64,000 nt of DNA from Thermoplasmatales archaeon SW_10_69_26 (GCA_003009755.1 PXUB01000042.1:55821-119820); one strand, 5' to 3'. Numbered from the stretch's first letter, positions 11,359 through 55,124 are shown. Made by a program: numbers and translations. The notes: generated by a model from the sequence alone, not told the origin.

Positions 11359-11376
11359 TCACGCGCGTCACCACCT

Positions 11377-13997: not shown

Positions 13998-14013
13998 TCG
14001 GCTGATCCAGCGC

Positions 14014-14144: not shown

Positions 14145-14157
14145 AAGGTTTAATGAG
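14145..14157 (+). promoter_or_regulatory. Archaeal TATA-box-like element
   Basis: AAAGGTTTAATG in otherwise very GC-rich DNA, about 25-30 nt upstream of the ATG at 14180; fits a (near-)leaderless archaeal promoter. Confidence 0.45.
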
Positions 14158-14179
14158 CTGCTGGGGGTCCCTTCCCACG

Positions 14180-17091: not shown

Positions 17092-17135
17092 CCGGTCCCC
17101 GAGGACGAGGGCCGATCTGTGAGGCCCCTCGCGCC

Positions 17136-17228
17136 GAGGGATCAGCGACGGGCGCCCCCGCCGAGACCGCCTGGACCGACGTCGGCCCCTTCGAGGGCGA
17201 TCTGGACCGCGACGGCGAGGACGGCAAC
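17136..17228 (+). pseudogene. Possible C-terminal relic of a third copy of the 8872/11521 secreted-protein family
   Basis: Frame reads EGSATGAPAETAWTDVGPFEGDLDRDGEDGN. Compare EGSAHEFGLGQQTWHDIDAFDGDPDRNEQR (paralog 2) and ..HTWYDVDPFDGDADRNEQR (paralog 1). Confidence 0.45.
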
Positions 17229-17352
17229 CGGCCCCAACACCACGCGAGACGTGCCGGCCCGCCGGTGATCGGCGCCCGCTTGCCCCCACCTGAATACAGA
17301 CGCACCACAAGCTTGAAGGGCACTTCGGCGGACTGCCGAGCGGGGACCACAC

Positions 17353-20300
17353 TTGGGCAAGAAGAAGACCGCGATCGTTCTCACACTGGCATGCGTCGTC
17401 GTGGCGTTCGCTATCCCCTACATGATGGGGGGTTTCGACGCCGCGAGCGACGCCGACGGAGAGGCTACGAGCACGGACGACGCCGACGGAGCCGACGCCT
17501 TCGAAGGGCCCTCGGCTACGGCCAACGGCGACGATGCCAACGGTGCCGGGTCCCCCACCGACCAGGCGATCGTCGACGATCTGCTCACCGCGGCCAACCC
17601 CGGCTCCTCCGAGGGAGACACGATCCGGTCCCGTCTTGCCCCCCTGACGGCCACCGCCAACGACTCGGCGGCTGAACCCTACCCCACCCCCGAAGCGACG
17701 ACGCTGTACCAGGCGACCCTGGCCCACCCCGCGCACAGCGACCAGGACCTGCGCTACGTCGAGACCCTCCAACCGCTCCCCGAGGACCTCGACCGCGCGC
17801 TGGCCCAGATCGTGATCGCCCACGGCGTCTCCACCCAGATGCTGAACAGCGACCCCGCGCCCGGCGCCAGCCTGCGCGCATCCGTCACGATGGCCACGGC
17901 CCTCGACACGGCGATGCCCACGCTCGAGCGCTACGTCAACCACCCCGTCTGGGACACGACGAGCTCCGCCGACGAGGACGCCTCCACGGCCGAGCTGCAG
18001 GCGCCCCCGCTGCCCGAGGCGCTGCTCGACCTCTACGCCTCGCTGGGGTACGACCAGGCGACGGTCGACGAGCTCGAAGCCCCCGCCGAGGCCGCCGCTG
18101 GTGAGCTCCCCCCCGAAGAAAGCCGGGCGCTGGCTCGCCTGGTGACCGCTCAAGCCAACGTGCAGCGCGCTACCGCAAGCTCCCTGCTGTTCGTCGCCGC
18201 CCCGGCCTCCCACGGACCGTCCGAGGACGCCGTCGACGCGATCGACGACGGCATCTCCGGCACCCCGCTCGAGCAGCTGACGGTGGCCACCCAGCAGCTG
18301 CGAGCCGCCGCCCAGTCCGCCCACGACACGATCGAGACCTCGCCCGCCGACGAACAGGTCCGCGAGGAACCGTGGAGCGACCCGCTGGGCCTGATCGTGG
18401 TCGGGACCCGCGGCGAGGACACCTACGACGACCAGCACGGCACCGGTCAGGCGATCCTCGACGGGGCGGCCGACGCGGCCGCCGGGCAGGCCGACGGTCT
18501 GCGCGCGCTCGTAGGTAACGCGACCGCGAACACGAGCGACGTCTCCACCATCGCCCAGCTCGACGAGACCAGGGACGGGACCACCCGCAGCGAGGCCGGC
18601 GTGGACGCGGCCAACCGGTCCACGGAACCGAAGCCCGGCTGGCACATGCTCGTGCTCGACCCCGGCGGGAACGACACCTACCGGAACAACGCCGGCGGCA
18701 TCGAGGCCGGCAGCGTGATCGTCCGCGCCGACGTCGACGCTCGCGGCGCCAGCGAGGGCGTCGAGAGCCTGATCGTCCGCGGCGACCGCGTGTGCTCGCC
18801 CGGCGTCGGGTTCTGCGAACCGGACCAGCCTCCGCGCGTCGGCGCGCAGCTCCAGAGCATCGCCGCCGGAGCCACGGCCAGCCAGGGACCGGTCCCGCTC
18901 GGGCTCCCCCTGACCGCCACCGTCGTCGACACCGACGGCGACGACAGCTACGAGGACACCGGCGACGCGATCCAGGGCTCCGCCGACGGTCTCGGGGTCG
19001 GTCTCCTCTACGACCGCGCCGGCGACGACGAGTACGAGGGCACGCACGTCGCCCAGGGCGCCAGCGAGAACTACGGCATCGGGATCCTCGTCGACGGCGA
19101 AGGCAACGACACCTACGAGGCTCGCGAACGAGCCCAAGGGTGGGTCGAGCTGCCCGACCCCAGCGCAGAAGCCACGGTTCCCCTCCTGTTCTTCGAAGGT
19201 GAGGACCCCCGACCTGAGATCGCGCTCGCCCGCATCGCCGAGGGCTCCCTCATCGACACCGGCGGCAACGACGGCTACCGCCTGGCCAACGACGTCGGCG
19301 GCCAAGGCATCGTCGAGACCCCCGAAGGGATCCCCCGCCAACTCGTCAACAGCTTCGGCTACCCGGCCGAGCAGGTCACCGCCCAGCTCGTCGACGTCGG
19401 CGGCGACCAGACCCTCCCGATCCCCGAGCTCACGATCCGCGGGCGGACGACCGAGATGACACCCTCGCGGGTCAACGTCAGCGAGGAGACACCGGCTCAC
19501 TTCTGGCTCACCCGCCGCGTCCCCGAGCCGCCCTCGGACGACCCCGGCGGCCTCGCAACCGACACGTCCCGGTTCAAGACCGCGGTCCAGCTCGACCCCG
19601 AGGCGGTCCCGGATCCGGTCAGCGAGGACGCCGTGCGCGCCGGCAAGGTCCAGTTCACCTGTCGCGAGGGGGGCTCCTTCGCGAACGACGCGAACGAGGA
19701 CGCGACCGCGGAGCGCCTCGCCTGCGGGGTCGGCGCAGGCCTCGGCAACACGCCGCCGCTGTTGCTCTTCGGCGAACCGACGAACGTGACCGATCCGCCT
19801 GCGCTCACGGTCACGTTCGGCGGTGACACGCACTACAACGGATCCATCGCCTCGATGGGTCACGAGTCCTCCCCCAGCCAGTTCTTCGCTGGTAGGATCG
19901 CGGCCAGGTTCACCCCGGAGATCCTCACCGACCTCGCAGGGAACGACACCTACGAGGGGGAGAACAACACGATCGCCTCCCTGGCCAACTACGGTGTCGG
20001 GATGGTCATCGACCGCCAGGGAGCGGACGAGATGATCGCCCAGAACCGATCGGTCGCCTACTCGGAGGCCGCCCTCGACCTCCGGTCCGGCCCCGTGGCG
20101 GCCGTGCTCGACCTCGACGGTGACCTCACCGTGCGCTCGGGCGAACGGTCGCAGGGCTTCGCCAGCCTGATCGACAGCCGGGAGGTCGTCGCCGACGAGA
20201 ACTTCCCCCAGCGGACTCCCCGCGGTCAGATCGTCCCCCCGATGGCGCTGCTCGACGCTGGCGCCTCCGCCGACGAGCTCGACCCCGACACGGCCACGCC

Positions 20301-23300
20301 GGGTCTCCCCAGCGAGGACGAGGCCCGCAACGCCGTCGAGACCGCCGGCCTCGATCTGACGGCCGGGAACGAGAGCCAGGGGTTCAGCGAAGGCCTCGGT
20401 GTCGGCGTCGTCGTCGGCTCCCCCGCCAGGGACAGCTACGAGGTCGACGGCTGGGGCCAGGGCGTCCACGACGGTCAACAGCTGCTCACCCGCTTTTGCG
20501 AATTCGACCCTGCAAGCAATGCAGGCGAGGGCCAAGCCGACACCGTCCGGAATCGGCTCCGCGACGTCAACCCGTGGGCCGGAGGCATCGGCCTCCTCAT
20601 CGACCCGGCCGGCGACGACGACCACCTCGTCGACAGCGGCGTCGGTCTCGGCGACGCCACCGCCGACGAGGCCGCCTGCTCCAACCCCAACTCGCTCGGG
20701 CCCCACCACGTCAACGTGCTCGGGCTCGGCACCGTGCTGGACGTCCGCGGTGACGACGCCTACGAGGTCACCGACGAACCGCCCCGTCCGGCCAGCTTCC
20801 CGCCGCGGAGCTGCAGCGGAGGGAGCCTCTCCGAGTGCGAACCCAACGACGACAGGGCCTGGATGTCCATCTCCGAGGAGAAAGCCGCTGGCGGCAGCAC
20901 GACCGGTGTCGTCAACGGACCGAGCACGATCGGGTTCGGCGTGGACAACGTCCGCAACGCCCACCACCTCGGCATGGCCGCCTGCCGCAACCTCGACGCC
21001 TACGAGGCCGGCTTCCTCGACCGGGAGAAGATCGAAGGTGCCCGAGAGAGGGTCGAAGACGCCGGCTTCGGCGGCCCGAACACCAGCGCCGCCGCCTCGG
21101 CTGCGGTCCTCGAATGCGACGAGGCGCTGGCCGACCTGTGGGAAGCCTACCTCGGCGAGGTCGTCGAGGACACGCTCTCCGTCGACCGTCGCCCCAACCT
21201 CGAGGTCGCCCTGCCGCGCGCCGGCGGCGACGTCGACGTGGCCTCCGGTCAGACCGTCGACGCCTCCGACGAGCTCGGCGACGACCGCCTGCCGCTGCCG
21301 GACGAGATCACCACGCCCGAGGATCCCGAACCGCTGTTCCTCGGCGAGGCCGCCCGACCGCAGTGTCAGGACCGCCAGGACGACCGCGAGGTCAGCCCTC
21401 GCGGGGACCCCGATCTCGGCTGCCTGTCGGTCACCCGCGACATCGACATGGGCCAGTGGTTGACCAACGACCCCGCCTCCGACCGGCTGGACCCCGGGGA
21501 CACGCTGGGCTGCAACTGCTCGGTCCGCCTCTTCATCGAGGCCGACCAGGGCGGCGACAGCATCAACCTGCGCACGCTCGACGACCGCGGCCTGTACCCC
21601 GACCGCGGCCGAGCCACGACGCAGACAACCGACACGCAGACCTGGTACGACGCCTTCAACCGCTTCCGCGTCCCGCTCACCGTCGACGAACCGATCCAGG
21701 ACGGCCGCCTGCGCGGCGACTTCGTGCAGCCGGAGGCAGCCGCCGACTTCCCGCTGAACCTCTCCCAGCTGCCCACGGGCCTCGCGCGCGCTCAGGTCAC
21801 GGCGGTCGTCGAGGACACCGCCGCCGAGGAGACCGGCGGCGCCATCCCCTCGGCCGTCGAGCGCTGGCGACCCACCTTCATCCACGAGCGCTCCTTCCAG
21901 CAGGCCTACGTCAGCCAGACCGACGACGAGACGACGGTCTTCCTGGCCGCACCGGGCCCGGTCAGCGACACGACAGAGGCCACGCTCGCCATCGCCCAAG
22001 CCGACGCGGACCTGCGCGAGGAGCTCACCGACCAGGGCTGGACGGCGGCCAACGCGACCTCGTTCAGCCACGAACTCCCCTCGAAGACTGTGATCGACGG
22101 GCCCAGTCGATCGCCCGTCATCCCGCAAGCGGGAGCTCCCGCCTGCGCGGCGTTGATCGACGACCGGTTCGACGGCGACGCCGGCGTCTGCTGGACCGGC
22201 TCCGAGGTCGTCGTCGGTCTCCCGCTCGGCGAGGTCGACCCCGCCGACGTCGACGAGCTCGGCGCCGACGGCGAAGGCCTCCCCGTCGAGGACCTGACGC
22301 TGTCGGACAGCGAAGCCGAGCCTCGCATCCGCTTCTCCAGCGAGGACACCTACGGCGTCGACACGAGCGCCGAGAACGTCACCGAGCAGCCGGACGTCTC
22401 CGCGCTGCCGGACGTCCGCGGCGTCCCCGGCAGCGAGGTCGGACCGGCCGGCCGGGACGTGGCCGAGACCATCCTGGGCGATCGCAGCGACGAGAACTGG
22501 GCCCTGCTCACCGTCGAAGCCGACGAGGACGAGGCGATCGGGTTCTCGGCGATCGACCCCGACGACCGCGGCGATCTCGACGAGGTCAACCTAACCACCC
22601 AGCATATCCGCACGGAGGACTACAGAGGCGAGGGGACCGTCGAGAGGCTGGATGACCCCAAGCCCACCCACGAACACGCGCCGGTGCACCGTTCGCTGGG
22701 CGTGGGCGATGCCGACCACGCCCACCTGGAGATCTGGCAACCGCCCTCCAACGACGCCGAGGTTCTCGAGGACGAGAGCCTCGTCTTCGATGACACCGAG
22801 CGCCACGTGATGCCGTGCGCCAACCTCAACTACGTGAAGACCGACGACGTCCAGCGCCTGCTCCAGGAACAAGCGAGGAACGACTCCGATCTCCGCCACC
22901 GCACGTGTGCCACCTTCGCCGCCGACGGCGAGCTCAACTACCTGCTCCCGCTCGGCGGTCTCTCCGGCACCCAGATCGTGCGGCTGGAAGCCCACGGCAT
23001 CCAGGCCGACGGCGAAACCACGACCAAGCAGATCACCGGGTACATCGATCCGGTCGGCCCCCAAGGCCAGGTCTTCGTCGACCCGGCAGCCAACAAGACG
23101 GCCGAGACGTCCGTGCGGCTGCAGCTGTCGACGCAGACCGCCGAGACCCCGATGCTCACCCAGGCCCCCAGCGATCCCGGCTCCGACAGCGACCTCGACG
23201 CGATCGCGCTCGAAGCCCGCGGTCCCAACACCACCTGGCAAGAGGTCGACGACACCTGGGACCAGATCCCGACCCCGCTGCGCCCCAGCGTGGACGCTGA

Positions 23301-25536
23301 CGTCAACCTGACCAGCTTCACCGACCCCGAAGCCGACGCCTCCACCGTCGAGCTGCGGGGCGTGCTCGAGGACGAGTCCAACAACACGCTGCGGACCAAC
23401 GTCCGCGAGTTCGTGGTCGACCGCGCGGAACCGAACATCACCGAGTCCCGGATCGTCTCCGGAGCCGGCCAGGACCGACTCATCCTCTCCGTCGACGAGG
23501 CGATCGCCGACGTCGACTGCCGGACCGAGGACTGCCCGCTCGAGCCCCAGGAACCGATCCCGGGCGCCGAGCCGGAGCCGTTCCTCGACCGGACGCGGAT
23601 CGACATCGGGGCCCGCACGATCTCCATCCCGATCTTGAACCTGGAACGCGGCCCCACCTACCAGGTCGGCCTCGAGGTCACCGACACGCTCGGCAACACC
23701 CTCGCGACCAACCTGACCCTGGACACGTACACACCGATCACCGTCGATGCGAGCCCGATGGAGAACACTCTCGTGAACAAGACCGTCACGCTCAGCTGGA
23801 CGACCGAGACCCGCGACAGCCAGACGATCTCGACCTTCTCGAGCGCCTACCTCCTCCTGCCGGACGGCCCCTGCGCCCTGATGCAGTCCAACCCCGGCGT
23901 CGTTCCGGCCAACGAGGAGCAGACGAACGAGGAGGGGCCGCTCAGCGTGCGCGGCGAAGCCGGGGAGTCCGCGTGCGTGATCCCCGACGAGGGCGTCGAC
24001 GCCACGCTGCTCATCTACGCGCTCGCCCCGAACATCGACGGGCTCGCGCTCGACCGCGTCCCCGTCCACGTCGACACCGCCGGTCCCTCGGTCACCGTCG
24101 ACGGGCCCGAGGGATGGGTCAACGACACCGCGAGAGTCCAGGCCTCGTCCAACGACTCCCTGGCCACCCAGCTCGAGATCTTCGTCGACGGCGAACCGCA
24201 AGGGATCGAGGGCTCCGAGGGCGAGATCACGATCAGCGAGGAAGGCGAACACGCCGTGCTCGCCCGCGCCACCGACGAAGCCGGGAACGCCGCCGTGAAC
24301 CGGACGACCGTTCGCATCGACAAGACCGACCCCAGCGTCGACGCCCGCGTGCTCGGCGTCCGCGGCGGGCTCGCGCTCGTCAACGCCACCGCGGCCGACG
24401 AGACCTCGAGCGTCCGCGACGTGCAACTGTTCACGCGCTCCACCAGCGGCCCGGCCGTGCCGGGCGTCGGCGACGAGAGCGTGCTGCTGTCCGTCCCCGT
24501 CGAACCCTCCGAGGACGAGCTCGTGCTCCGCACCCGCGACCAAGCGCAGAACACCCGCGACCTGCGGCTGTCGATCGCCGACGTGCCGCGCGTCGAGGAT
24601 GGACCGCTCGTCACCGGCGTGGACCTCACGACGCCGGCTCCCGACACGCTGCGGGCCTCGTTCGACACCTCGAACGAGACCACGCCCGTGGTCATCGTCG
24701 ACGCCGGCGACCGCCACGTCGAGCGAGCCCTCGAGCCCGGCACCGAGCACGCGCTCACCATCGAGCGACTGCCGCCCGGGTCACAGGCCCAGTTGACGAT
24801 CACCACGCCGCGCGACAGCTCCCTCGTGCCCGTCCTCAACGCGACGGCCCCGATGCCCGAGGACAGCCAGCCGCCCACCGCGCTCGGCAACGTGCAGGCC
24901 GAGCCCGTCGAAGGCGCGGTCCGGTTGACCTGGGAGGAGGCCGACGACGACATCGGCGTCCGCGAGGTCGTCATCCAGCGCGATGGCACCGAGGTCGCCC
25001 GCCCATCGGCGAACACCTATACGGACGAGCCGGGTGTCTTCGACGAGCACACCTACAAGCTGGCGGCGGTCGACCACGCCGGCAACCGTGGTCCGTGGAG
25101 CGAGATCGACGCTCGACCGATCGCCACGTTCCAGATCACCGAGCTCACGACCGATCCCGAGGTCCTCTCCCCCGACGACACCGTGACGGTCGAGGCGACC
25201 GTCCAGACGCCGGCCGGCCTCACGCCGGACGTCGTCACGGTGAGCCTCGGCGGTGAGCAGCTGCCGATGCAGCCGGCCGACGAGGGTCCCTACTCGGCCA
25301 CGTACGAGGTCACCACCCGGCTGCCGACGCTGGACGTGGCGGCCGAGGAGACCGACATGGTGGTCAACGCGACCGCCGGCGACCGAACCGAGACCGAAAC
25401 GTTCCCGGCCCCGGTCGTGGCTACCGTCGGCCCGACCGGCGGCGCCGACCCCGACGAGGTCCCCGCGGCGGGGATCGGTTGGGCGATCGCGACGATCGCC
25501 CTCGTTGCTGTCACCCGACGGAGGTGGTCCCACTGA
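17353..25536 (+). CDS. Giant secreted surface protein with GxDxY repeats, Ig-like and FN3 domains, C-terminal TM
   Basis: 2727 aa. LGKKKTAIVLTLACVVVAFAIPYMMGG signal/anchor; about ten [ILV]DxxG[ND]DxY repeats. FN3-like QPPTALGNVQAEPVEGAVRLTWEEADDDIGVREVVIQRDG...YKLAAVDHAGNRGPWSE. C-terminus VPAAGIGWAIATIALVAVTRRRWSH. Confidence 0.85.
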   Translation: MGKKKTAIVLTLACVVVAFAIPYMMGGFDAASDADGEATSTDDADGADAFEGPSATANGDDANGAGSPTDQAIVDDLLTAANPGSSEGDTIRSRLAPLTATANDSAAEPYPTPEATTLYQATLAHPAHSDQDLRYVETLQPLPEDLDRALAQIVIAHGVSTQMLNSDPAPGASLRASVTMATALDTAMPTLERYVNHPVWDTTSSADEDASTAELQAPPLPEALLDLYASLGYDQATVDELEAPAEAAAGELPPEESRALARLVTAQANVQRATASSLLFVAAPASHGPSEDAVDAIDDGISGTPLEQLTVATQQLRAAAQSAHDTIETSPADEQVREEPWSDPLGLIVVGTRGEDTYDDQHGTGQAILDGAADAAAGQADGLRALVGNATANTSDVSTIAQLDETRDGTTRSEAGVDAANRSTEPKPGWHMLVLDPGGNDTYRNNAGGIEAGSVIVRADVDARGASEGVESLIVRGDRVCSPGVGFCEPDQPPRVGAQLQSIAAGATASQGPVPLGLPLTATVVDTDGDDSYEDTGDAIQGSADGLGVGLLYDRAGDDEYEGTHVAQGASENYGIGILVDGEGNDTYEARERAQGWVELPDPSAEATVPLLFFEGEDPRPEIALARIAEGSLIDTGGNDGYRLANDVGGQGIVETPEGIPRQLVNSFGYPAEQVTAQLVDVGGDQTLPIPELTIRGRTTEMTPSRVNVSEETPAHFWLTRRVPEPPSDDPGGLATDTSRFKTAVQLDPEAVPDPVSEDAVRAGKVQFTCREGGSFANDANEDATAERLACGVGAGLGNTPPLLLFGEPTNVTDPPALTVTFGGDTHYNGSIASMGHESSPSQFFAGRIAARFTPEILTDLAGNDTYEGENNTIASLANYGVGMVIDRQGADEMIAQNRSVAYSEAALDLRSGPVAAVLDLDGDLTVRSGERSQGFASLIDSREVVADENFPQRTPRGQIVPPMALLDAGASADELDPDTATPGLPSEDEARNAVETAGLDLTAGNESQGFSEGLGVGVVVGSPARDSYEVDGWGQGVHDGQQLLTRFCEFDPASNAGEGQADTVRNRLRDVNPWAGGIGLLIDPAGDDDHLVDSGVGLGDATADEAACSNPNSLGPHHVNVLGLGTVLDVRGDDAYEVTDEPPRPASFPPRSCSGGSLSECEPNDDRAWMSISEEKAAGGSTTGVVNGPSTIGFGVDNVRNAHHLGMAACRNLDAYEAGFLDREKIEGARERVEDAGFGGPNTSAAASAAVLECDEALADLWEAYLGEVVEDTLSVDRRPNLEVALPRAGGDVDVASGQTVDASDELGDDRLPLPDEITTPEDPEPLFLGEAARPQCQDRQDDREVSPRGDPDLGCLSVTRDIDMGQWLTNDPASDRLDPGDTLGCNCSVRLFIEADQGGDSINLRTLDDRGLYPDRGRATTQTTDTQTWYDAFNRFRVPLTVDEPIQDGRLRGDFVQPEAAADFPLNLSQLPTGLARAQVTAVVEDTAAEETGGAIPSAVERWRPTFIHERSFQQAYVSQTDDETTVFLAAPGPVSDTTEATLAIAQADADLREELTDQGWTAANATSFSHELPSKTVIDGPSRSPVIPQAGAPACAALIDDRFDGDAGVCWTGSEVVVGLPLGEVDPADVDELGADGEGLPVEDLTLSDSEAEPRIRFSSEDTYGVDTSAENVTEQPDVSALPDVRGVPGSEVGPAGRDVAETILGDRSDENWALLTVEADEDEAIGFSAIDPDDRGDLDEVNLTTQHIRTEDYRGEGTVERLDDPKPTHEHAPVHRSLGVGDADHAHLEIWQPPSNDAEVLEDESLVFDDTERHVMPCANLNYVKTDDVQRLLQEQARNDSDLRHRTCATFAADGELNYLLPLGGLSGTQIVRLEAHGIQADGETTTKQITGYIDPVGPQGQVFVDPAANKTAETSVRLQLSTQTAETPMLTQAPSDPGSDSDLDAIALEARGPNTTWQEVDDTWDQIPTPLRPSVDADVNLTSFTDPEADASTVELRGVLEDESNNTLRTNVREFVVDRAEPNITESRIVSGAGQDRLILSVDEAIADVDCRTEDCPLEPQEPIPGAEPEPFLDRTRIDIGARTISIPILNLERGPTYQVGLEVTDTLGNTLATNLTLDTYTPITVDASPMENTLVNKTVTLSWTTETRDSQTISTFSSAYLLLPDGPCALMQSNPGVVPANEEQTNEEGPLSVRGEAGESACVIPDEGVDATLLIYALAPNIDGLALDRVPVHVDTAGPSVTVDGPEGWVNDTARVQASSNDSLATQLEIFVDGEPQGIEGSEGEITISEEGEHAVLARATDEAGNAAVNRTTVRIDKTDPSVDARVLGVRGGLALVNATAADETSSVRDVQLFTRSTSGPAVPGVGDESVLLSVPVEPSEDELVLRTRDQAQNTRDLRLSIADVPRVEDGPLVTGVDLTTPAPDTLRASFDTSNETTPVVIVDAGDRHVERALEPGTEHALTIERLPPGSQAQLTITTPRDSSLVPVLNATAPMPEDSQPPTALGNVQAEPVEGAVRLTWEEADDDIGVREVVIQRDGTEVARPSANTYTDEPGVFDEHTYKLAAVDHAGNRGPWSEIDARPIATFQITELTTDPEVLSPDDTVTVEATVQTPAGLTPDVVTVSLGGEQLPMQPADEGPYSATYEVTTRLPTLDVAAEETDMVVNATAGDRTETETFPAPVVATVGPTGGADPDEVPAAGIGWAIATIALVAVTRRRWSH

Positions 25537-45200: not shown

Positions 45201-48200
45201 TCCGCGCCCAGCTCGCGTTCGCTCACGAGGTCGCCCTGCAGACGGACCCCAGCCTCGTCGACACCGACGCGAACGGCTACGTCGACGCCTGGGAGGTCCT
45301 GCACGGGCTCGACCCCACCGATCCCACGTCCCCGCAGGGGGACAGCGTCGACACCGACCCCGGCCCCTCCCAGGGAGACGGCCTCACGATGCGAGAGGAG
45401 TACGAGGCCGGCACCGACCCCTTCAACCGCGACACCGACCAGAACGGGCAGGGGCTCCCCGACGGCGTCGACGTCGATCCCCTGGACCCGACCGACGACT
45501 CCGGGGACTGCGACTGGGACGGCATCGACGACCCCGAGGAGGCACGCCTGCCCGGCGCCGAGCCCGGCACCCCCGACACCGACGGCGACGGCCTGGTCGA
45601 CGAGAGCTACTCCCCCGAGGGCTGCCGGATCGACGGCGAGATCCTCCGCGAGCCCACGCCCGGCGTGGATCTCATCGCCATCCCCACCCCGAACGAGGAC
45701 CCCGACGACGACACCGACGATTTCCTCGGCGAAGCCGACATCGGGACCGACGCGGCCGCGTGGGAGACCAACAACGACGACCTCCCCGACGGATGGAAGG
45801 CCCTCTACGACCTCGATCCGGGGACCTCACACACCACCAGCGACACCGACGGCGACGGGATGAAAGACACCACCGAGTACGAGCTCGGCCGCCCCGCCTG
45901 GTGGCACGAGGGACCGATCGAGATCGACGGCGAGATCGAGGACGGTCACGGCGCCTGGTGGTTCGGCTCCGATCCGCGCTCGTCCAGCACGCGCGACCTC
46001 GACGGGGACGGGCTCGACGACGGCCTGTTCGACCCCGAACCGCTGAGCCCCGACAACGACTGCCAGCTGCCCGACGCCTGGTCGCTGCCCCCCGCCTGGA
46101 ACGAGGCCCACTGCCTCTCCGAGAAGCCCGCCGAGGAGGACCTCGAGGAGGTCCTCACCGGGCTGCGCCAGCTCGCCTACGAGCACGTGTTCACCGCCGA
46201 CGATCCCGACGCTCGACGCTCCGCCGACGAGGCGGCCGACGCCGTCGAACTCCACACCGAGGATCTGCAGATCACGCCGGAGGTCCTCTCCACGCACGAG
46301 CCGTTCAACGTCACCGTGCCGCTGTGCGCCGAGTCCGGCGATCGCTGCACGCAAACCGACGACCGTCCCCCGCTCGTGGGCATCTACGCCGTGACCAAGA
46401 AGGGCGCCGACCCCAACCCGAAGGAGGACCCCCTGCTGTGCGTGATCGACCCAGCGACGGACGGCGAGCCCTGGGTCGCCGACACCGAAAGCGACGGAAC
46501 CGCCCACGTCGAAACCGACGCCTGCCCGTTCGAGCCCGGGCAACGCACCCTCACCGACGACACGGACCCGCTCGTCCTCGCCCCCCACGCCCACGGCACG
46601 CTGCGACCCGGCGGCTCGTGGACGATCGAGGACGCCGATCTCGTCCCCGGCAGCCAGCTGCGCCTGGCCGCCTGGCCCCTGCCGACGAAGGTCGGGTCGA
46701 CGCCGCTCGTCGCCGACCAGACCGAGGAACCCGAGACCCCGGCCGTCGTCTCCCAGACCCCGGCCGCCGAGGGCGTGCTCTCCGTTCGCGACGACCCCGT
46801 GCTCGAGGCCGGCGAGGACAAGGAGGTGACCGTGCTTTTGCGGGACCGGGCCGGCTTCGTGATCCCCGACCGCCCGGTCGAGGCGTCCTGGAACGACGCC
46901 GAACCCGAGCGCCAGCTCGTGGACAGCCGCGGACGGCTGAACCTGACCCTCGACGGCATCGCCACCGACGAGCCGACGACCCGTCCGCTCAACGCGTCGT
47001 TCAGCGGATCCGGCGTCGTCGAAGGCACCGAGCGGACGTTCCCGCTCCCCGTCCGCGTCGGCTCCACGATGCGGCTCTCCGTCTCCCAGGGCACCGCGCC
47101 CGGCCAGCTCCCCGCCGAGGTGTCCCTCACCGACACCACCGGCACCAGCCTGTCCCAGCGACCGGTGACCGCCACGGCCCAGCTGCCCGGCGAGGGGACC
47201 GCGAGCGCGAACGCCACGACCGGGCCCAACGGCAACGCGACGGTCTCGATCCCGTTGCCCGCCGGCACCGACCCCGGCCAGGCGAAGGTCTCCGCGTCCT
47301 TCGCCGGCGACGACGAGGCCGCACCGAGCACCGCCGAGGGCCTGGCCGACATCCGCGTCGACCCGCAACTCGAGCTGCAGGCCCCCGACGAGGCGCGCCT
47401 CACCGAGGGCGTCCGTCTCACCGTCAACCTCACGCACCCCAACGGCGACCCGGTCGCGCCCGCGCCCGGTGAAGCCTTCCAGATGGTGTTCCGCCTCGGC
47501 TCGCTCGAGGAGACCCGCAAGATCGTGTCCGCGCCCACCAAGGGCCAGATCACGCACGTCTTCCCCAGCGGGCCCGATCTGCCGCTGGGCACCAGCTCGC
47601 TCGAGGTCGAGCTCCGCGATGGCCGCTTCAACCCGGCCTCCAGCGTCAGCGACGAGGTGACCGTCCGCAGCACGGTCGACACCGAGCTGTCCACCGACGT
47701 GCTCGGCGTGGGCGTCGACAACAACGTGACCGTCGAGGTTCGCGATGCACTGGGCCGACCGATCGACGACGCGTCCGTGACCGTCGACGTGCGCGAGGCC
47801 ACCGCCACCGCTACCACCGGCACCCGCGGCGAGGCCCCACTTGCCCTGTCGCTGCCGCTGTCGAGCCAGCGCGGACCCGCGAGGGCGACCGTCGACGTCG
47901 ACGGCACCAACCGCACCGTGCCCTCCTCCGAGGACGTGGACGTCACCGTCACGCTCGGCACCGAGTTCCGCACGTCCCCGACCGTCACCGGCTCGCTCGA
48001 CGGGTTCGATCTGCAGGGCCGGCTGGTCACCGCCACCGGCGAGGGCGTCTCCGAGGCCCTGGTGCGCGTCACCGGCCTCGGTTCCCTGGACATCGTCACC
48101 GGGCCCGACGGCGGCTTCTCCGCCCAGCTGACGCCACCGCCTGGCACCCAGCCCGGCAACCAGACGCTCACCCTCGCCTACGAGGGCGAGGACACGCTGG

Positions 48201-49237
48201 CCCCCGCCCGCGCCGAGGTCACCGCCGACCTGTTCCAGACGGTCAACCTCACGCTCGAGGAACCGCCCCTCGTCCCGACCGGCGGGCAAGCCCGCATCAC
48301 GGGCGAGCTCGTGTCCCGCGGCGAGCCCGTCGAGGATGCGAGACTCGAGCTCACCATCGGCAACGCGACCACGACCGCGACGACGGCCTCCGATGGCTCC
48401 TTCACGATCGAGGGCCCGATGCCCGAGGGCGAGTCCGGGGCCGTGGACGCCACCGTCGGCTTGCCCCGTCAACAGGGCCTGGCGGAGACGACGCGCGCCC
48501 TCCAGATCCAGGCGGTGGAACCGGTCGACCTCACCACGTCGAAGCGCTCGACCGACGACGGCGTGACCGTCACGATCCAGGCCGCCACCAGCAGCGGCGA
48601 CCCCGTGGCTGGCGAGACCATCGTGGCCTCCCTGCCCGGCGGCCAGACCCAGCTCACGACGAACGACGACGGTGTCGCCCGCTACCACCTGTCGTCCGAC
48701 ACCGCCGACGAGGGCACGCAGATCGAGTTCGTCTACCAGGGCTCGGACACGCAGGCCCCCGCCTCGACCACGGTCAGCGTCCAGTCCGCCAGCGCACCGA
48801 TCTCGGGCACCCCGATCGGGATCGCCGCGATCGTGCTCGTGATCGCCGTCGAAGGCGTGATCCTCTGGCGCGTCTACCGTCGACGCAAGGTCGTCGACAC
48901 CGTCGTGGACGCGGTGCAGGACCTCGAGAACCGGCTGCGCGCCGGCGACGAACTGCGCGCCGCCGTCATCCAGACCTTCCGCCGCATCCAGAACGGGCTC
49001 GAAGCGCTCGGCCAGGAGGAAGCCGAGTGGGAGACCCACCGCGAGTACCTGGCCCGCAGCTTCGACGCGATCGACGCCGACGTGGACGAGTTGGGACCGT
49101 TCATGGACCTGCTCGACCGCGCCCAGTACGGCGCCGAACCGCTGGGCCCCCAGGACCGGGTCCGCGCCCTCCAGCTCTCGCAAGGTCTGTTGGACGAGCT
49201 CGTGACCGCACCGACCCGCGGAGGGGATCAGACGTGA
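39296..49237 (+). CDS. Giant surface protein (3313 aa): CARDB-like region, internal TM hairpin, TSP3/EF-hand-like repeats, Ig/CarboxypepD-reg-like repeats, TM, cytoplasmic DUF4129-like tail
   Basis: ATGA overlap with the previous stop. MRAAPLILLALLVPVGFLIVTGEEAQAQ signal; WYDEDWPFRLVVQ; many DxDxDGLxDGWE repeats. C-terminus IGIAAIVLVIAVEGVILWRVYRRRK...AAVIQTFRRIQNGLEALGQEEAEWETHREYLARSFDAIDADVDELGPFMDLLDRAQYGAEPLGPQDRVRALQLSQGLLDEL. Confidence 0.87.
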   Translation: MRAAPLILLALLVPVGFLIVTGEEAQAQSGGPDWYDEDWPFRLVVQADRTAQVTDLGEARSDLVGYEIAFDDALDRAQWPSSLVTASDPSSIVVVPYGSLAAGTQPGDPLPRTVSDPVSTTGSCEVGEISRCLITWERVPGAKAYGIYWAPDTANVDVPDTGEGPQLVGTTMGQEHWAFLRPFDQPDLHVSPVPDDARITAFTATGQQTIYADGSGSNCETRNDVLTCSVPSVKVRVLTSEPTTTVVTENNGPATYPLVGPQGQVGNELHGVIPGGTWDEPPELVLWAHNGSCSGGCEVEVSPASTRQSPVTVTSSAAVTVELSTRTDPQAVVADAPGDEQIHAAFRGPGFMPVDARDAERTNTWLPVDRFFSAQTPQPTRVDLNDISKSKVLQEDRRVDPPISQVSLDPETDTLEVVSEDPVYTYAGRITDLTEATHQPIPARDRLPVPANARLLALTPQLGGATQTANLESVSGQDPTTQLLRLSAGASRGIVDPGNEPSVVGVDTNAPMGFVVTNEGAGDSNLFGQALGVRQPVQATVDSADYLADAIDIAVTPQSTFAGSGAVVDFNVTVRNLAQGSGGSVPSLSVDLSLDPIGTAEGNVSTTLETSTVQLPGEADATRTVGVSARVAEGLSDVVLPLRVNATVEGADGLTASDKSRISVVTIRDFQFTYTDGSSEQTQTAQPGSTNTFDLQVRNTGTVPSSITLEKDAFGGEGFDTCLRVSGGSCSSSITLEDIQPGNTRTAELRVDSPDKESEDRLEVTVRGELADNAGPVRTVDATVFLNVPVVATIDTDPSRLQLTPGARETVDVTVINQGVQSDARLSLPSSGGAINATLVDPETGEPNATLSQLLGPRNTQAAVWETQLEIEVAEDAPPGLRTETLLDLRLQPGGGLPSFGTSSKVSVQVIRQLSNEPLNAPTIPPGTATRVEVPLQIGLFGDTSVDVRLDSAPPLWNVTPPTELSFDEDGRSLLAFNATPPAGAEPGNATVSFRVLDPLGPGGVLPVDLGVARGGQAEISTRERLGVAMGSPTVLPLTIRNVGNEPLSGDIVLENAPGNVTLTTPPLPTLAPANGTTTLPATITARESVEGPVSVGVLDGSRRAGNTTVDLVADRAEISLSPNLIVPQEDPSPGESYPVTVTVNNDGRVPVRNLTVALLENDARLADRAIERLPANGSATVTIEWLPDEEVSRSDLSVHADPDGQLMQDREDDSLGFDDANETPGPGLVLLLLSLAVPSGLKGTWQLFSRRERWLAIGGVLLLLVLIPALFIPAITVDQSPADASTPEEFNDTDADGVSDAAEVTRYGTDIQNNDTDEDEVPDGWEAQYARFNQTFRDFRPDPGRPDAGEDIDEDGLTNRREFEAGTHPHESDTDEDGFPDGWEVRSGLDPTTATPGDEDCSGNGLTNQEEFELGTLACLTDSDRDGIPDTAERAGEWTFQDEDYEFDPTDPATRSTGGSGSPDGWLLVHDLDPHVSEHSTADPDGDELSTTREWKHTEARGFADPGNWSEGLDPTTADTDGDGLPDGWELRNGLDPLDAEDGSLDSDEDGLTNGAEFQAGTDPEAADSDGDGLSDGEEVDGYEITVDDETTQVRSNPLIGDTDGDGLTDFQEREGRVEDRSFPATNPLSSDTDGDGLSDGGEVFALSGPDTLDPTVSDSDNDGLLDGEEWDLWMGKAEQARSDAGYAARIDAQTRRSVDDIPAILEPTGDLDDDGMPNVLDPNADTPEDLSSLPEAEQETLVDGEEAFPPSRSGRTLPTSDPSLRDTDGDSLPDSWEREYTEFSSDVGGWLLDPRRADSDGDGTPDNEEDLETACYSDREIEGDGVPWFNFAYTNELELERGTDPLACDSDEDGLPDGWEIEGARRMQSSGLQVQLNPNSEDSDSDGTLDGDETSPTGVPNTDAILWAEDPACTDGAPKTGKGVCLYRWGGGDPGVPDRSIPTDRTDTSFVQIADDRCDPGERCHLVRAQLAFAHEVALQTDPSLVDTDANGYVDAWEVLHGLDPTDPTSPQGDSVDTDPGPSQGDGLTMREEYEAGTDPFNRDTDQNGQGLPDGVDVDPLDPTDDSGDCDWDGIDDPEEARLPGAEPGTPDTDGDGLVDESYSPEGCRIDGEILREPTPGVDLIAIPTPNEDPDDDTDDFLGEADIGTDAAAWETNNDDLPDGWKALYDLDPGTSHTTSDTDGDGMKDTTEYELGRPAWWHEGPIEIDGEIEDGHGAWWFGSDPRSSSTRDLDGDGLDDGLFDPEPLSPDNDCQLPDAWSLPPAWNEAHCLSEKPAEEDLEEVLTGLRQLAYEHVFTADDPDARRSADEAADAVELHTEDLQITPEVLSTHEPFNVTVPLCAESGDRCTQTDDRPPLVGIYAVTKKGADPNPKEDPLLCVIDPATDGEPWVADTESDGTAHVETDACPFEPGQRTLTDDTDPLVLAPHAHGTLRPGGSWTIEDADLVPGSQLRLAAWPLPTKVGSTPLVADQTEEPETPAVVSQTPAAEGVLSVRDDPVLEAGEDKEVTVLLRDRAGFVIPDRPVEASWNDAEPERQLVDSRGRLNLTLDGIATDEPTTRPLNASFSGSGVVEGTERTFPLPVRVGSTMRLSVSQGTAPGQLPAEVSLTDTTGTSLSQRPVTATAQLPGEGTASANATTGPNGNATVSIPLPAGTDPGQAKVSASFAGDDEAAPSTAEGLADIRVDPQLELQAPDEARLTEGVRLTVNLTHPNGDPVAPAPGEAFQMVFRLGSLEETRKIVSAPTKGQITHVFPSGPDLPLGTSSLEVELRDGRFNPASSVSDEVTVRSTVDTELSTDVLGVGVDNNVTVEVRDALGRPIDDASVTVDVREATATATTGTRGEAPLALSLPLSSQRGPARATVDVDGTNRTVPSSEDVDVTVTLGTEFRTSPTVTGSLDGFDLQGRLVTATGEGVSEALVRVTGLGSLDIVTGPDGGFSAQLTPPPGTQPGNQTLTLAYEGEDTLAPARAEVTADLFQTVNLTLEEPPLVPTGGQARITGELVSRGEPVEDARLELTIGNATTTATTASDGSFTIEGPMPEGESGAVDATVGLPRQQGLAETTRALQIQAVEPVDLTTSKRSTDDGVTVTIQAATSSGDPVAGETIVASLPGGQTQLTTNDDGVARYHLSSDTADEGTQIEFVYQGSDTQAPASTTVSVQSASAPISGTPIGIAAIVLVIAVEGVILWRVYRRRKVVDTVVDAVQDLENRLRAGDELRAAVIQTFRRIQNGLEALGQEEAEWETHREYLARSFDAIDADVDELGPFMDLLDRAQYGAEPLGPQDRVRALQLSQGLLDELVTAPTRGGDQT
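43160..46060 (+). repeat. Coding region of thrombospondin-type-3/EF-hand-like calcium-loop repeats
   Basis: Recurrent DTDADGVSDAAE, DTDEDEVPDGWE, DIDEDGLTNRREF, DTDEDGFPDGWE, DSDRDGIPDTAE, DTDGDGLPDGWE, DSDGDGLSDGEE, DTDGDGLTDFQE, DSDEDGLPDGWE, DTDGDGLVDE. Confidence 0.92.
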
Positions 49238-50193
49238 ACCGGCGACGTTGGGCCGTGATCGCGTGGGCGCTGCTCGTCCTCGGCTACACGGTCGCCGCCG
49301 GCTTCACCGTCCCTCCCCGCGAGGGCACGGCCGACCCCGACGGGACCGGGCACCACTCGGCCGCCCAGCTCGAACGGTTGATCGCCACCTCCGCCGACGG
49401 CAGCGATCGGCTGTCGCTCACCCCGAGCACGAGCATCCACGGCCCCACCGAGCTCACCGTGATGGTCGCCCCCGAACGCTCGCCGTACCCGACCGAGGGC
49501 GACGTGATGAACGACGTCCTGGCGGACGGCGGCACGGTCGTGCTCTTCGCCGCGACGCCCGCCTGGAACGGGTTCCTCGCCGAGCACAACATCCAGCTCG
49601 ACAACTCCACCCTCATCCCGACCGCGAACCCGTCCACGAGCAACCTGCTCACGCTCGATCTCCCCGCCAGCCTCGGCTCGGGGGAGCTGCTCATGCCGAA
49701 CGCGACCGCGGTCAGCTCCGAGGATCCCAACGTGACGACCTACCAGCCCGACGAGGAGACGGTGCTCGACGAGAACGGCAACGGACGCATCGAGGTCCCG
49801 CCCGACCAAGCCGGGGCCTTCCCCGTGGCCGCCTCCACGAGCGTCGGCGACGGCCGCCTGGTCGTCATCGCCAGCTCCGAAGCCGTGCTCGGCGCCGGGC
49901 TCGAACGCAACCTCGACGCCACCGGCGACATGCTGTCCACGCTCTCCGGCGACCAACCCGCCGCGTTCGACGCTGCCACCCACCCGCGAGGCTGGAAGGA
50001 TCTGGCCCGTGCGCCCGCCGGCGCCACGCTCGGCGTCGCGCAGGCCTCCCCGGCCGGGTTCGGCGTCGTCGCCCTGCTCGGCATCGGGCTCGTCTTCGCG
50101 CTCCCCAAGCGACCCACCGAGGAGGAGGTCACCGGCGCCCTCGACGAGTTCACCGACACCACCCGGGAGGTGATGCTCGATCGAGGCGATTGA
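49234..50193 (+). CDS. DUF4350-domain membrane protein
   Basis: GTGA overlap. VNRRRWAVIAWALLVLGYTVAAGFTVPPREG N-terminal TM; MNDVLADGGTVVLFAATPAWNGFLAEHNIQLD; second TM ASPAGFGVVALLGIGLVFALPKRP. Confidence 0.78.
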   Translation: MNRRRWAVIAWALLVLGYTVAAGFTVPPREGTADPDGTGHHSAAQLERLIATSADGSDRLSLTPSTSIHGPTELTVMVAPERSPYPTEGDVMNDVLADGGTVVLFAATPAWNGFLAEHNIQLDNSTLIPTANPSTSNLLTLDLPASLGSGELLMPNATAVSSEDPNVTTYQPDEETVLDENGNGRIEVPPDQAGAFPVAASTSVGDGRLVVIASSEAVLGAGLERNLDATGDMLSTLSGDQPAAFDAATHPRGWKDLARAPAGATLGVAQASPAGFGVVALLGIGLVFALPKRPTEEEVTGALDEFTDTTREVMLDRGD

Positions 50194-50200
50194 CCGCACC

Positions 50201-51409
50201 TTGGTCGCGGCCGGCCTCCTGGCCGCGGTCACCTTCGTCACCGGGTCCCCGATCCCCGCACTGACCGGCGCCGGCCTGCTGACGCTGGCCGGCCTGTTCC
50301 AGCTCGTCCCTCCGGTCGGATCCGTCGAGGCCGAACGGGAGGTCGACAGCGTCCGCACCGTCGAGGGCGGTGACGTCGTCTCGCGCGCCCGCCTCGACGG
50401 CACGCTGCGCGTCCCGGGCGTGATCACGCTCGACGACGAACCCCCGGCCATCGCCGAGATCCAGTCCCCCGGCCGGCGAACCCACCTCGGCGTCGGCGCC
50501 TTCGCGCTCGAGGGCGACACCGAGATGACACTGCCCGTGCGCGGCGTCGCGGACATCGGTCCGCTGACGGCGTTCGCCCTGGATCCGCTGGGCCTGGTGA
50601 GCCACCGGTTCGAGGCCCTGTCCCCCGACAGCGTGCACGTCTGGCCCCGTGGCGAGGACGCCGACGAGCAACCGCTGCGCGCCCGGTACGAGCGGATGCT
50701 CAGCGGCCGCCACAACGTGCCGAACCCCGGTGAGAGCCTGGAGTTCTACGGCATCCGCGAGTACCAGCCCTCCGACCCGATGCGCAAGGTCAACTGGAAC
50801 CAGACCGCGGCCAAGGGCGAGATGCTCGTCAACGAGAACGAGCAGCAGACCTACGGCGAGGTCGCGGTGTTCGTCGATGCCCGCCGCATCACCGGCATCG
50901 GCACCCACCGCGAGAACCCTCTGCACGAGGTGTGCCGGTTCGCGACCACCCTGGGAAACATCGCGTACGCGACCCAGGACGTGATGCGTGCCTACGCGTT
51001 CGGCCCGGCCGACTTCGACCGGTTCCGGCCCGACCCCGGCAGCCCCTGGAAGGACCAGTACAACGACTGGCTGACCGAGCTGGAACCCGCCGGCGACCTC
51101 ACCGTCGAACCCGTGCTCGACGAGGTGTTGCCCTACCTGACCGAGCGATCGATCGTCGTCTTCATCACCCCCCTGTTCGGTGACGACGTCATCGGCGACG
51201 CCGCCCACCGGGCGATGGCGTTGGAGAACGACGTGCTTGTCATCGCGACCGGGCTCCCCGACAGCCTGCCCGACGCCATCCAGGACAGCCTCGACGAGGA
51301 TCGCGAGGACCGGCTGGCGAACCTGCGCGACCGCGGGGTCCCCGTCATCGACGCCGCGGCCGGACGCACGCTCGAGCAAGCCATCGACGAGCAGGAGGCG
51401 ATGATGTGA
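50201..51409 (+). CDS. DUF58 domain-containing protein
   Basis: 402 aa. N-terminal TM pair, then GESLEFYGIREYQPSDPMRKVNWNQTAAKGEMLVNENEQQTYGEVAVFVDARR...VVFITPLFGDDVIGDAA, the diagnostic DUF58 R-x-Y-x(3)-D-x-x-R-x-(I/V)-N-W motif with vWA-like fold. Confidence 0.9.
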   Translation: MVAAGLLAAVTFVTGSPIPALTGAGLLTLAGLFQLVPPVGSVEAEREVDSVRTVEGGDVVSRARLDGTLRVPGVITLDDEPPAIAEIQSPGRRTHLGVGAFALEGDTEMTLPVRGVADIGPLTAFALDPLGLVSHRFEALSPDSVHVWPRGEDADEQPLRARYERMLSGRHNVPNPGESLEFYGIREYQPSDPMRKVNWNQTAAKGEMLVNENEQQTYGEVAVFVDARRITGIGTHRENPLHEVCRFATTLGNIAYATQDVMRAYAFGPADFDRFRPDPGSPWKDQYNDWLTELEPAGDLTVEPVLDEVLPYLTERSIVVFITPLFGDDVIGDAAHRAMALENDVLVIATGLPDSLPDAIQDSLDEDREDRLANLRDRGVPVIDAAAGRTLEQAIDEQEAMM

Positions 51410-51912
51410 ACCGGATCGCGCTCACGCTGGCCGCCCTCGGCACGCCCGGCCTTCTCGTCCTCCCCTTCGCCACGACCTCGGAACTGGTCCCGTTCGTCGC
51501 CGTCGTCGGTCTCGTCGCCCTCGGCGGCGTGACGGCGATCGCGGGCGCAGCCACCGGCCGCGTCCGCGTCCACGGCGCCGGGATCGCGCTCGCCATCACG
51601 GGCGCCGGCCTGACCGGCGTCGGCCTCCCGACCGCGTTCGTGGGCCTGGGGGTCGCATCCGCAACGCTTTTCATCGCGTCCCTCAACCTGCACCTGGTGC
51701 TACCCGAGCACGGGGGCGGCGTCACGCTCGTGTTCGCCGCGCTCGTCAGCTCGGCCCTCGTCGCCGCGCTCGGCCTCCTGGCCGGGCGAGGGGCACGGTT
51801 CCTGGGTGGCGGCGGTGTCGACGCCGCCGGGGGTGTCGCGGCCTGGCTCGTGCTCGTGGCCGCGGTCACCTGGGGACTGGTCCGATGGGCGCAGGAGGCC
51901 CAGCCTGGATGA
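51406..51912 (+). CDS. Multi-TM membrane protein of the DUF58 operon
   Basis: 168 aa, about five TM helices. GTGA overlap with DUF58 and ATGA overlap with the next gene. Confidence 0.7.
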   Translation: MNRIALTLAALGTPGLLVLPFATTSELVPFVAVVGLVALGGVTAIAGAATGRVRVHGAGIALAITGAGLTGVGLPTAFVGLGVASATLFIASLNLHLVLPEHGGGVTLVFAALVSSALVAALGLLAGRGARFLGGGGVDAAGGVAAWLVLVAAVTWGLVRWAQEAQPG

Positions 51913-54900: not shown

Positions 54901-55124
54901 CGACGGTCGTCCACGAGGAGGGCGCCAGCGAGACGGTTCACATCGCCAGCGTGCAGTCCCAGCAACCGCTGGGCGACCGCTTGGGCGAGTTCGCCATCCC
55001 CCTGTTGATCCTGCTCGCCATCGGGCTCGTCGTCGCGATCGCGGTCCTCGTCTACCGCCAACGCCGAGACGAGGAGGACGAGGACGCCGAACTCGAGCCC
55101 GAGGCGATCGACGGCGCCGCCTGA
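51909..55124 (+). CDS. Large membrane-anchored Ig-like surface protein
   Basis: 1071 aa from the overlapping ATG. RRSVLFALLAVAALVGVAAAAQGQ signal; repeated Ig-like beta-sandwich segments; C-terminal TM FAIPLLILLAIGLVVAIAVLVYRQRRDEEDEDAE. Confidence 0.82.
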   Translation: MTSARHRRSVLFALLAVAALVGVAAAAQGQDRIRGDVLVNESSLIGFTDAEDTAIEEVDERPSDSRLEASDVGLRGPDTVSRPSGDEGQRAYMLGLSASAALGIDQPVLDRYANGELDDAFLELSYQNGCSSPNGELVVQAIETRSWSPFDVGWDDTTLGNGSIAIDGPELARAPISTSSAQDNPDIGCNQATLALETDRVERVLNAELGGIALTWQGEQPLNVSTLNSEDPPVLDVNFTTQGPSVDEIAVADGYPAVVDTGERFSIAVNATDAQDLPDDAVAIDVAPQNETVNNASTLEATRSGDLFVASQTFTADAEGRYTLQGQATDTDGWIDREPPDASAPHVVADGTAPEIPVATLGPQATGTLVDADEGTSLDLAANVSDLTCAAGVSPCGEWRLAWHDQTLANGTLTSDHRIQAQVPLPRPGNTTATLVVEDAIGHTNRSTTWTLNVTDTVPPTASPLEGTDLSPGQGITVENGTPIQLRAQIEDDLPVEGRLVLEGSQTIDRDLPAPDEDGLIEAEITGVPQGSYRARLVLDDGTHTRRVGFGDLTVAAQGAPSVSIDLPSTRIGPKQALDATVRDRDLDEAKTTVVAEVNGLEVQPDVDREPVENGLDLTIHLGDVGHEDIVNVTVRAQDRQGLEADARARVTVDAEPPTLVEPETDTWAAPGDTVRLSARDPGGGDVSMTLDAPQTRSAGPSPRSVTIDKLVPEPGRLVNVSVTLSDDIGNEQTTSVHVGLDDAPPEASPVFTREGLIIDTQDNASGVLRVDALVGVDGEPLNETQVFQESPTRFFVATGDLTRGDEVALAAQVRDRVGHETALGTAQDPLELTVPDRAPRIEIERASATIADVGRVNWTAEDPDEDPLDVTVEVTRPDGTRETVSGQAIGSHAIEPGEPGRYGVTVEASSAGNATQASTFFYLGPEGRLVQATSVPDDVEPGRSLVVELSFASEPQQVFVTATDEDEAVTSATVDLQGSQATATFEGLPEGTYDLEATVVHEEGASETVHIASVQSQQPLGDRLGEFAIPLLILLAIGLVVAIAVLVYRQRRDEEDEDAELEPEAIDGAA

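What the first reader, a model, noticed from the sequence alone, without database searches (positions are those of the whole stretch)
17353..55124. 37.8-kb co-directional gene train of giant surface proteins plus DUF4350/DUF58: candidate surface-assembly system
Seen: seven consecutive + strand genes (about 2727, 4591, 3313, 319, 402, 168 and 1071 aa). Every junction overlaps or is under 10 nt (13-nt overlap at 25524, ATGA at 39296, GTGA at 49234, 7-nt gap at 50194, GTGA at 51406, ATGA at 51909). Five of the seven proteins have an N-terminal signal or anchor plus a C-terminal or internal TM, and four of them are huge multi-domain ectoproteins. Established: DUF4129, DUF4350 and DUF58 genes co-occur in bacteria and archaea, often with MoxR AAA+ ATPases and transglutaminase-like proteins. 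Inference: here the cassette is dedicated to assembling, anchoring or maturing giant Ca-binding surface fibres, an envelope or adhesion system I do not recognise as described.
Basis: partly seen in the sequence, partly recalled or inferred. Interest (0 to 1): 0.92.

Follow-up and report, generated by a model that had tools for sequence, protein, structure and literature searches.

The report
Archaeal giant surface protein assembly cassette
A run of seven genes in a Thermoplasmatota archaeon, found in all seven genomes of its class that could be searched, encodes very large cell-surface proteins together with the membrane parts of a predicted but never tested archaeal secretion or assembly machine (the motor gene has moved elsewhere), so it is an unusual enlargement of a known predicted kind.

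Summary
In detail: seven co-directional, tightly spaced coding genes at the stated coordinates, three of them giants of 2,727, 4,591 and 3,313 aa. The synteny test that could have refuted the finding was passed. The order P1-P2-P3a-P3b(DUF4129)-DUF4350-DUF58-small membrane protein(-MoxR) recurs, whole or in contig fragments, in all seven genomes held for the class. Across 41 relatives DUF4129 occurs in 27 of 29 genomes with DUF58 and 0 of 12 without.

The cassette's MoxR ATPase is encoded on another contig, beside a DNA ligase gene that flanks the cassette in two relatives. P3 is homologous to phylum-wide giant transglutaminase-DUF4129 proteins, but no class cassette scanned retains a detectable transglutaminase domain, and none is detected anywhere in this genome.

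The core is not undescribed. Makarova, Galperin and Koonin (2015) predicted an archaeal secretion or membrane-remodelling complex from DUF4350, MoxR, vWA and Ig-like S-layer genes. This is an enlarged variant of it.

Most likely function: MoxR/DUF58-driven assembly and anchoring of giant surface proteins (about 0.6). Fibres, calcium binding and transcription are untested.

The parts
17353..25536 (+). P1, 2,727 aa giant ectoprotein: N-terminal hydrophobic segment, GDDxY repeat region, Ig-like domains, C-terminal hydrophobic segment with RRR tail (PGF-CTERM-like)
   Evidence: orthologue is the first giant in G004:C35, G006:C14, G002:C25, G006:C27
18655..20772 (+). P1 region with seven D..G[DN]D.[YF] motifs; the central ones (residues 525-580) spaced about 27 residues and predicted to be beta-strand repeats
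   Evidence: AlphaFold core about pLDDT 80, whole model 57.8; no PDB match
25524..39299 (+). P2, 4,591 aa giant ectoprotein: CARDB repeats, InhA-like MAM, weak FN3; N- and C-terminal hydrophobic segments; start may be CTG at 25533
   Evidence: orthologues of about 2,986-4,503 aa in the class
39296..49237 (+). P3, 3,313 aa; in-frame fusion of P3a (residues 1 to about 1250) and P3b (about 1250 to 3313)
   Evidence: separate genes in G001, G003, G004, G005, G006
42968..43120 (+). P3 fusion junction: PGPG, hydrophobic segment, RR (remnant of the P3a C-terminal sorting signal), then the N-terminal hydrophobic segment of P3b
43172..46075 (+). TSP3-type DxDxDG repeat region of P3 (20 motifs), candidate calcium-binding
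48809..48865 (+). P3 last hydrophobic segment (predicted membrane span)
48977..49177 (+). DUF4129 tail of P3, predicted cytoplasmic
49234..50193 (+). P4, DUF4350 protein, 319 aa, hydrophobic segments near both ends; modelled fold resembles the IFT52 GIFT domain
50201..51409 (+). P5, DUF58 protein, 402 aa, N-terminal hydrophobic segment(s) then DUF58
51406..51912 (+). P6, 168 aa polytopic membrane protein (about six overlapping hydrophobic peaks)
   Evidence: fused to P7 in G001:C183
51909..55124 (+). P7, 1,071 aa ectoprotein with C-terminal hydrophobic segment and acidic tail

Best explanation
The cassette is an enlarged, class-specific variant of the predicted archaeal DUF4350-MoxR-DUF58 envelope system. 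P1, P2 and P7 are exported, anchored giant or large surface proteins, and P3 is a giant surface protein whose tail reaches the cytoplasm as a DUF4129 domain. MoxR (an AAA+ ATPase, encoded elsewhere in this genome) acts with the membrane-tethered DUF58 protein inside the cell. That pair is coupled through the DUF4129 tail, the GIFT-like DUF4350 protein and the small membrane protein P6, and it drives assembly, anchoring or quality control of the giant proteins into an outer surface layer. Shown: gene order, coding, domains, class-wide synteny, phylum-wide co-occurrence, the detached MoxR, the P3 fusion and the absence of a detectable transglutaminase domain. Inferred: topology, protein contacts, direction of action, function, and co-transcription.
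For: Class-wide synteny with overlapping or short junctions. DUF4129 in 27 of 29 genomes with DUF58 and 0 of 12 without (Fisher p 1e-8), copy-number Spearman 0.91, 37 of 54 DUF4129 hits within 10 kb of a DUF58. In four genomes (G019, G027, G035, G040) DUF4129 giants are not near DUF58, yet counts match 2:2. The cassette MoxR is kept in trans at G000:C47, grouping with cassette MoxRs apart from the genome's other two (100/100), beside a DNA ligase gene that flanks the cassette in G002 and G003; L087 also has ligase-MoxR without the cassette. P6 and P7 are one ORF in G001. P4 model resembles IFT52 GIFT and OST subunits. Archaeosortase A is in all seven class genomes. Independent published prediction of the core (PMC5898192). 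Analogy: MoxR1 reported to interact with secreted RipA and mediate its transport in mycobacteria (PMC12067865).
Against: No experimental data for any member. Co-occurrence was not corrected for phylogeny. Whether DUF58 and DUF4129 face the cytoplasm is inferred from hydrophobicity; the 2015 paper treats the vWA protein as secreted. P2 lacks a clear PGF motif in this genome. MoxR is not in the operon here. The DUF4350 and DUF4129 Pfam matches of the window proteins are below the curated cut-offs, though relatives exceed them.
Confidence: 0.6

Rival explanations
1. It is a secretion system proper (as Makarova et al. proposed, by analogy with GldG and type IX secretion): P4, P5, P6 and MoxR form or energise an export route, and P1-P3 and P7 are its cargo.
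For: DUF4350 similarity to GldG and the authors' secretion model (PMC5898192); P6 is polytopic; giants are encoded with the machinery in every class genome.
Against: The giants have ordinary N-terminal hydrophobic segments, consistent with Sec export. P6 is only 168 aa with poorly conserved sequence. Many relatives carry the same core with modest ectoproteins.
Confidence: 0.17
2. It is an outside-in sensor: the giant ectodomains sense surface contact, ions or strain, and the DUF4129 tail passes this to DUF58/MoxR as an envelope stress response.
For: P3 joins a huge ectodomain to a cytoplasmic-type DUF4129 tail; the related PFNA operon was proposed to sense host signals and contains a kinase (PMC8430577).
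Against: No kinase or regulator gene was seen in the class cassettes; PFNA sensing is itself tentative.
Confidence: 0.15
3. It is a transglutaminase cross-linking system for surface proteins, with P3 as the enzyme.
For: P3b homologues in other families carry Transglut_core with DUF4129 (L227 2e-25, L196 5.6e-18, L228 1e-12, L226 4.5e-12).
Against: No Transglut_core in the window P3 or in eight other class P3b proteins scanned, and none detected in genomes G000 and G001 at all, against 37 of 41 genomes with one.
Confidence: 0.02
4. Chance neighbours: surface genes and the MoxR/DUF58 core happen to sit together and act separately.
For: Gene strings in compact genomes can join unrelated functions; in four relatives the DUF4129 giants are unlinked from DUF58.
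Against: The order is kept in seven genomes of four families, and unlinked copies still match in number.
Confidence: 0.03
5. A biological-conflict (anti-phage) MoxR-vWA system.
For: MoxR-vWA modules occur in predicted conflict systems (PMC7159879); weak bpMoxR match, E 0.0026, of a relative's cassette MoxR.
Against: No PADLOC match for P1, P4-P7 or the MoxR; class-wide conservation of the cassette; extracellular architecture.
Confidence: 0.03

Closest known systems
Predicted arCOG01314-associated secretion or membrane-remodelling complex (Makarova, Galperin, Koonin 2015, PMC5898192)
   Same: DUF4350 membrane-anchored ectodomain, MoxR ATPase, vWA-type partner, Ig-like surface proteins, small multi-span membrane protein
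   Different: Here giants of 2.7-4.6 thousand residues, a DUF4129-tailed giant, no DUF1616 gene, and MoxR encoded on another contig; the retrieved passages of that paper mention neither DUF4129 nor giant proteins of this size
PFNA operon of bifidobacteria (PMC8430577)
   Same: Large Ig/FN3-type surface protein encoded with MoxR ATPase, DUF58 and a transglutaminase-family protein
   Different: No kinase gene, no transglutaminase domain, has DUF4350, archaeal, very large surface proteins
TgpA locus of Pseudomonas aeruginosa, PA2875-PA2874-PA2873 (PMC3507681)
   Same: Co-transcribed locus with a membrane transglutaminase-fold protein; TgpA_N, Transglut_core and DUF4129 occur together in relatives of P3
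   Different: P3 lacks TgpA_N and Transglut_core and has CARDB, TSP3 and Ig domains
Mycobacterial moxR1/DUF58 operon next to ripAB (PMC12067865)
   Same: MoxR-DUF58 pair beside genes for secreted surface proteins; MoxR1 reported to interact with RipA
   Different: Bacterial cell-wall hydrolases; no giants

Membership tests
arCOG01314-associated predicted secretion system | Membrane-anchored DUF4350 ectodomain with GldG/flavodoxin-like (GIFT) fold | tested here: met
   DUF4350 E 3.5e-5, below curated cut-off; modelled fold matches IFT52 5fmr_A E 8.4e-7, mean pLDDT 74.8
arCOG01314-associated predicted secretion system | MoxR-type AAA+ ATPase in the operon | tested here: not met
   Absent from the window cassette; cassette-type MoxR is in trans at G000:C47; in cis in G002, G003, G004, G006. 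The paper says the majority of operons, not all, so this does not exclude membership.
arCOG01314-associated predicted secretion system | vWA-type partner (DUF58 here) | tested here: met
   P5 DUF58 E 3.7e-10; equating DUF58 with the paper's vWA families is my inference
arCOG01314-associated predicted secretion system | Membrane or secreted proteins with Ig-like domains | tested here: met
   CARDB, Big, PKD and MG-type matches in P1-P3 and P7, several sub-threshold
arCOG01314-associated predicted secretion system | arCOG02884 / DUF1616 component | tested here: not met
   No match in any cassette protein; present beside DUF58 in family f12
arCOG01314-associated predicted secretion system | Secretion activity | not testable with these tools
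   Needs experiment; the system itself is only a published prediction
PFNA operon | Serine-threonine kinase Pkb2 plus transglutaminase | tested here: not met
   No kinase match in the cassette proteins; no Transglut_core in cassette or genome
TgpA-type transglutaminases | Transglut_core domain with DUF4129 | tested here: not met
   DUF4129 present; Transglut_core absent
PGF-CTERM / archaeosortase A substrates | ArtA in the genome | tested here: met
   G000:C39, E 1.2e-40, over cut-off
PGF-CTERM / archaeosortase A substrates | C-terminal PGF motif, hydrophobic span, basic tail on P1 and P2 | tested here: inconclusive
   P1 ends VPAAGIGW...RRRW and P2 LPLHPLAA...RRDHSG; relatives end VPGF/LPGF...RRR; no PGF-CTERM hit in NCBIfam for P1, P2 not scanned there
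MoxR-vWA conflict systems | Match to known defence families | tested here: not met
   No PADLOC match

The most novel reading that the evidence does not exclude
A Thermoplasmatota class has turned an ancestral transglutaminase-DUF4129/MoxR/DUF58 module into an enzyme-free, ATP-driven machine dedicated to building a giant multi-protein surface layer (over 10,000 residues across P1-P3), with an internal sorting signal inside the P3 fusion that may be cut to release two surface proteins from one gene.
Probability: 0.3. Interest if true: 0.8.

Novelty: new variant of a known kind. Interest (0 to 1): 0.55.

Why it matters
DUF58, DUF4129 and DUF4350 are widespread families of unknown function, and MoxR ATPases have few known substrates. 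Here the candidate substrates are in the same operon, are enormous, and are conserved across a class, which makes the 2015 prediction directly testable. The loss of the transglutaminase domain suggests that the MoxR/DUF58/DUF4129 part can work without that enzyme, which separates a structural role from a catalytic one.

Tried and rejected
Transglutaminase cross-linking: rejected for this genome. Anti-phage system: no support. Absence of MoxR as evidence against the system: resolved by finding the cassette-type copy in trans. Gliding-motility naming from NCBIfam (CglD, MtsD, E 1.2e-23 and 4.3e-11): far below curated cut-offs and driven by TSP3 repeats, so not accepted. tRNA-Gly inside P3 on the minus strand: no Rfam match at gathering threshold, treated as a false positive. 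P1 repeat domain against PDB: no significant match. Part of P3 in G006:C14 is masked as N, and G002:C25 probably likewise. My gene calls in relatives come from a simple codon-based caller; start positions are approximate. A search with P1 over 293 phylum genomes scored only two candidates per genome and missed known class homologues, so it bounds nothing.

Full report
What was checked. The seven ORFs exist as described. Because the DNA is about 70% G+C, antisense ORFs of up to 2,142 aa also exist, so length was not taken as proof. A codon model trained on ten genes from other contigs of the same genome preferred the annotated frame in all 123 windows of 300 nt across the seven genes. Junctions are 4-nt overlaps or gaps of a few bases; P1/P2 may use a CTG start at 25533.

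Where it is. The window lies in a 2.8-Mb genome (G000) whose class has seven genomes held. The phylum is read as Thermoplasmatota, because the closest named MoxR relative is a Thermoplasmata archaeon from soda-lake sediment (PWVY01000186.1, 71% identity) and a phylum member has the size of the Aciduliprofundum boonei genome (from memory). The paper on those sediments reports abundant KTK 4A Thermoplasmata (PMC6146748).

Synteny. The order P1, P2, P3a, P3b-DUF4129, DUF4350, DUF58, small membrane protein, often MoxR, is seen in G004:C35, G006:C14, G006:C27, G003:C48 and G002:C25 (the MoxR position varies, and G003:C48 is cut at a contig end). Fragments of it are in G001 (C85 and C183) and G005:C385. 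A shorter second version, P3b-like, DUF4350, DUF58 and small membrane protein, with MoxR in the cassette in three of four, occurs in G003:C87, G003:C83, G006:C19 and G002:C23. In G004 the P3b/DUF4350, DUF4350/DUF58 and DUF58/P6 junctions are all 4-nt overlaps.

Phylum-wide pattern. In 41 relatives DUF4129 is present in 27 of the 29 genomes with DUF58 and in none of the 12 without (Fisher p 1e-8); copy numbers correlate at 0.91; 37 of 54 DUF4129 hits are within 10 kb of DUF58, against about 2% expected by a rough calculation. Relatedness was not corrected for. DUF4129 sits in open frames of 2,000-3,500 aa in 21 cases. In G019, G027, G035 and G040 such giants are not near DUF58, yet there are two of each.

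P3. Residues 1 to about 1250 match P3a proteins and 1251 to the end match P3b proteins that are separate genes elsewhere, including in the same family, where a 23-nt gap separates them. The junction reads PGPG, hydrophobic stretch, RR, hydrophobic stretch. The fusion is therefore particular to this genome among those examined. Relatives of P3b outside the class join Transglut_core, sometimes with TgpA_N, to TSP3, Ig and DUF4129 domains: L227 (Transglut_core 2e-25), L196, L228, L226, L203. By matching open frames between two searches I count 17 DUF4129 frames that also carry Transglut_core. No Transglut_core was found in the window P3 or in the class P3b proteins scanned, and none in genomes G000 and G001 (G001 is 75% complete).

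MoxR. The genome has three strong MoxR genes. Two sit with DUF58 on C37 and C11. The third, at G000:C47:42538-43551, groups with the cassette MoxRs (100/100) and lies beside an ATP-dependent DNA ligase gene, which flanks the cassette in G002:C25 and G003:C48 (ligase identified from sequence character, not by a family search). L087 also shows ligase-MoxR without the cassette. The simplest reading is that the cassette and its MoxR became separated in this family.

Other parts. P4 modelled with 14 sequences (mean pLDDT 74.8) matches the IFT52 N-terminal GIFT domain and subunits of the yeast oligosaccharyltransferase, in line with the GldG similarity reported for DUF4350. P6 and P7 are one ORF in G001. 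The central P1 repeats (about 27-residue spacing) are predicted as beta strands with no PDB match; similar repeats form 466-650 aa secreted-looking proteins in other families. Archaeosortase A is present class-wide, and giants of relatives end in PGF-like signals, while P1 here is degenerate and P2 lacks a clear motif.

Comparison with what is known. Makarova et al. (PMC5898192) described DUF4350, MoxR, vWA and Ig-like S-layer neighbourhoods and proposed a novel secretion system. This cassette matches most of that list; it lacks DUF1616 and has MoxR in trans. PFNA (PMC8430577), TgpA (PMC3507681) and mycobacterial moxR1 (PMC12067865) are bacterial analogues. Hence: new variant of a known, untested kind.

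Judgement. That the cassette is a real conserved unit is close to certain. That it assembles or anchors the giants is the best single reading at about 0.6; secretion proper and outside-in sensing remain open. Fibres, calcium binding, protein contacts and transcription were not and could not be tested here.

Noticed in passing
11358-13997: Second of two paralogous secreted-protein ORFs (first at 8872-11358) appears frameshifted: a signal peptide and matching N-terminus lie in another frame just upstream, so the gene is broken or misassembled.
   Followed up: partly
L195 (G024:C53) 6241-17462; L201 (G038:C146): In family f12 a DUF58 gene sits with DUF1616, a small membrane protein and a 2,534-2,558 aa protein; the L195 copy is an STT3/AglB oligosaccharyltransferase with CarboxypepD_reg domains, linking DUF58 to N-glycosylation.
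   Followed up: partly
L170 186-1586; L177 988-2940: Secreted-looking 466 and 650 aa proteins in other Thermoplasmatota rich in the GDDxY / SQG repeats seen in P1.
   Followed up: partly
43885-43965, minus strand: ARAGORN reports tRNA-Gly antisense inside P3; no Rfam support, probably false.
   Followed up: yes
14270-17091: Two overlapping ORFs upstream of P1 with PGF-CTERM-like tails (PAPGALVAA...RSRRAQR, PAPSALLVAG...RRRER); another secreted-protein pair.
   Followed up: no
G030:C70 and G011:C1: Transglut_core matches in open frames of 6,622 and 8,224 aa in family f9 genomes, even larger giants.
   Followed up: no
G000:C37:40-47 kb: The genome's other MoxR-DUF58 locus carries a 1,034 aa Ig-like protein with a DUF4129 tail and no transglutaminase domain.
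   Followed up: partly
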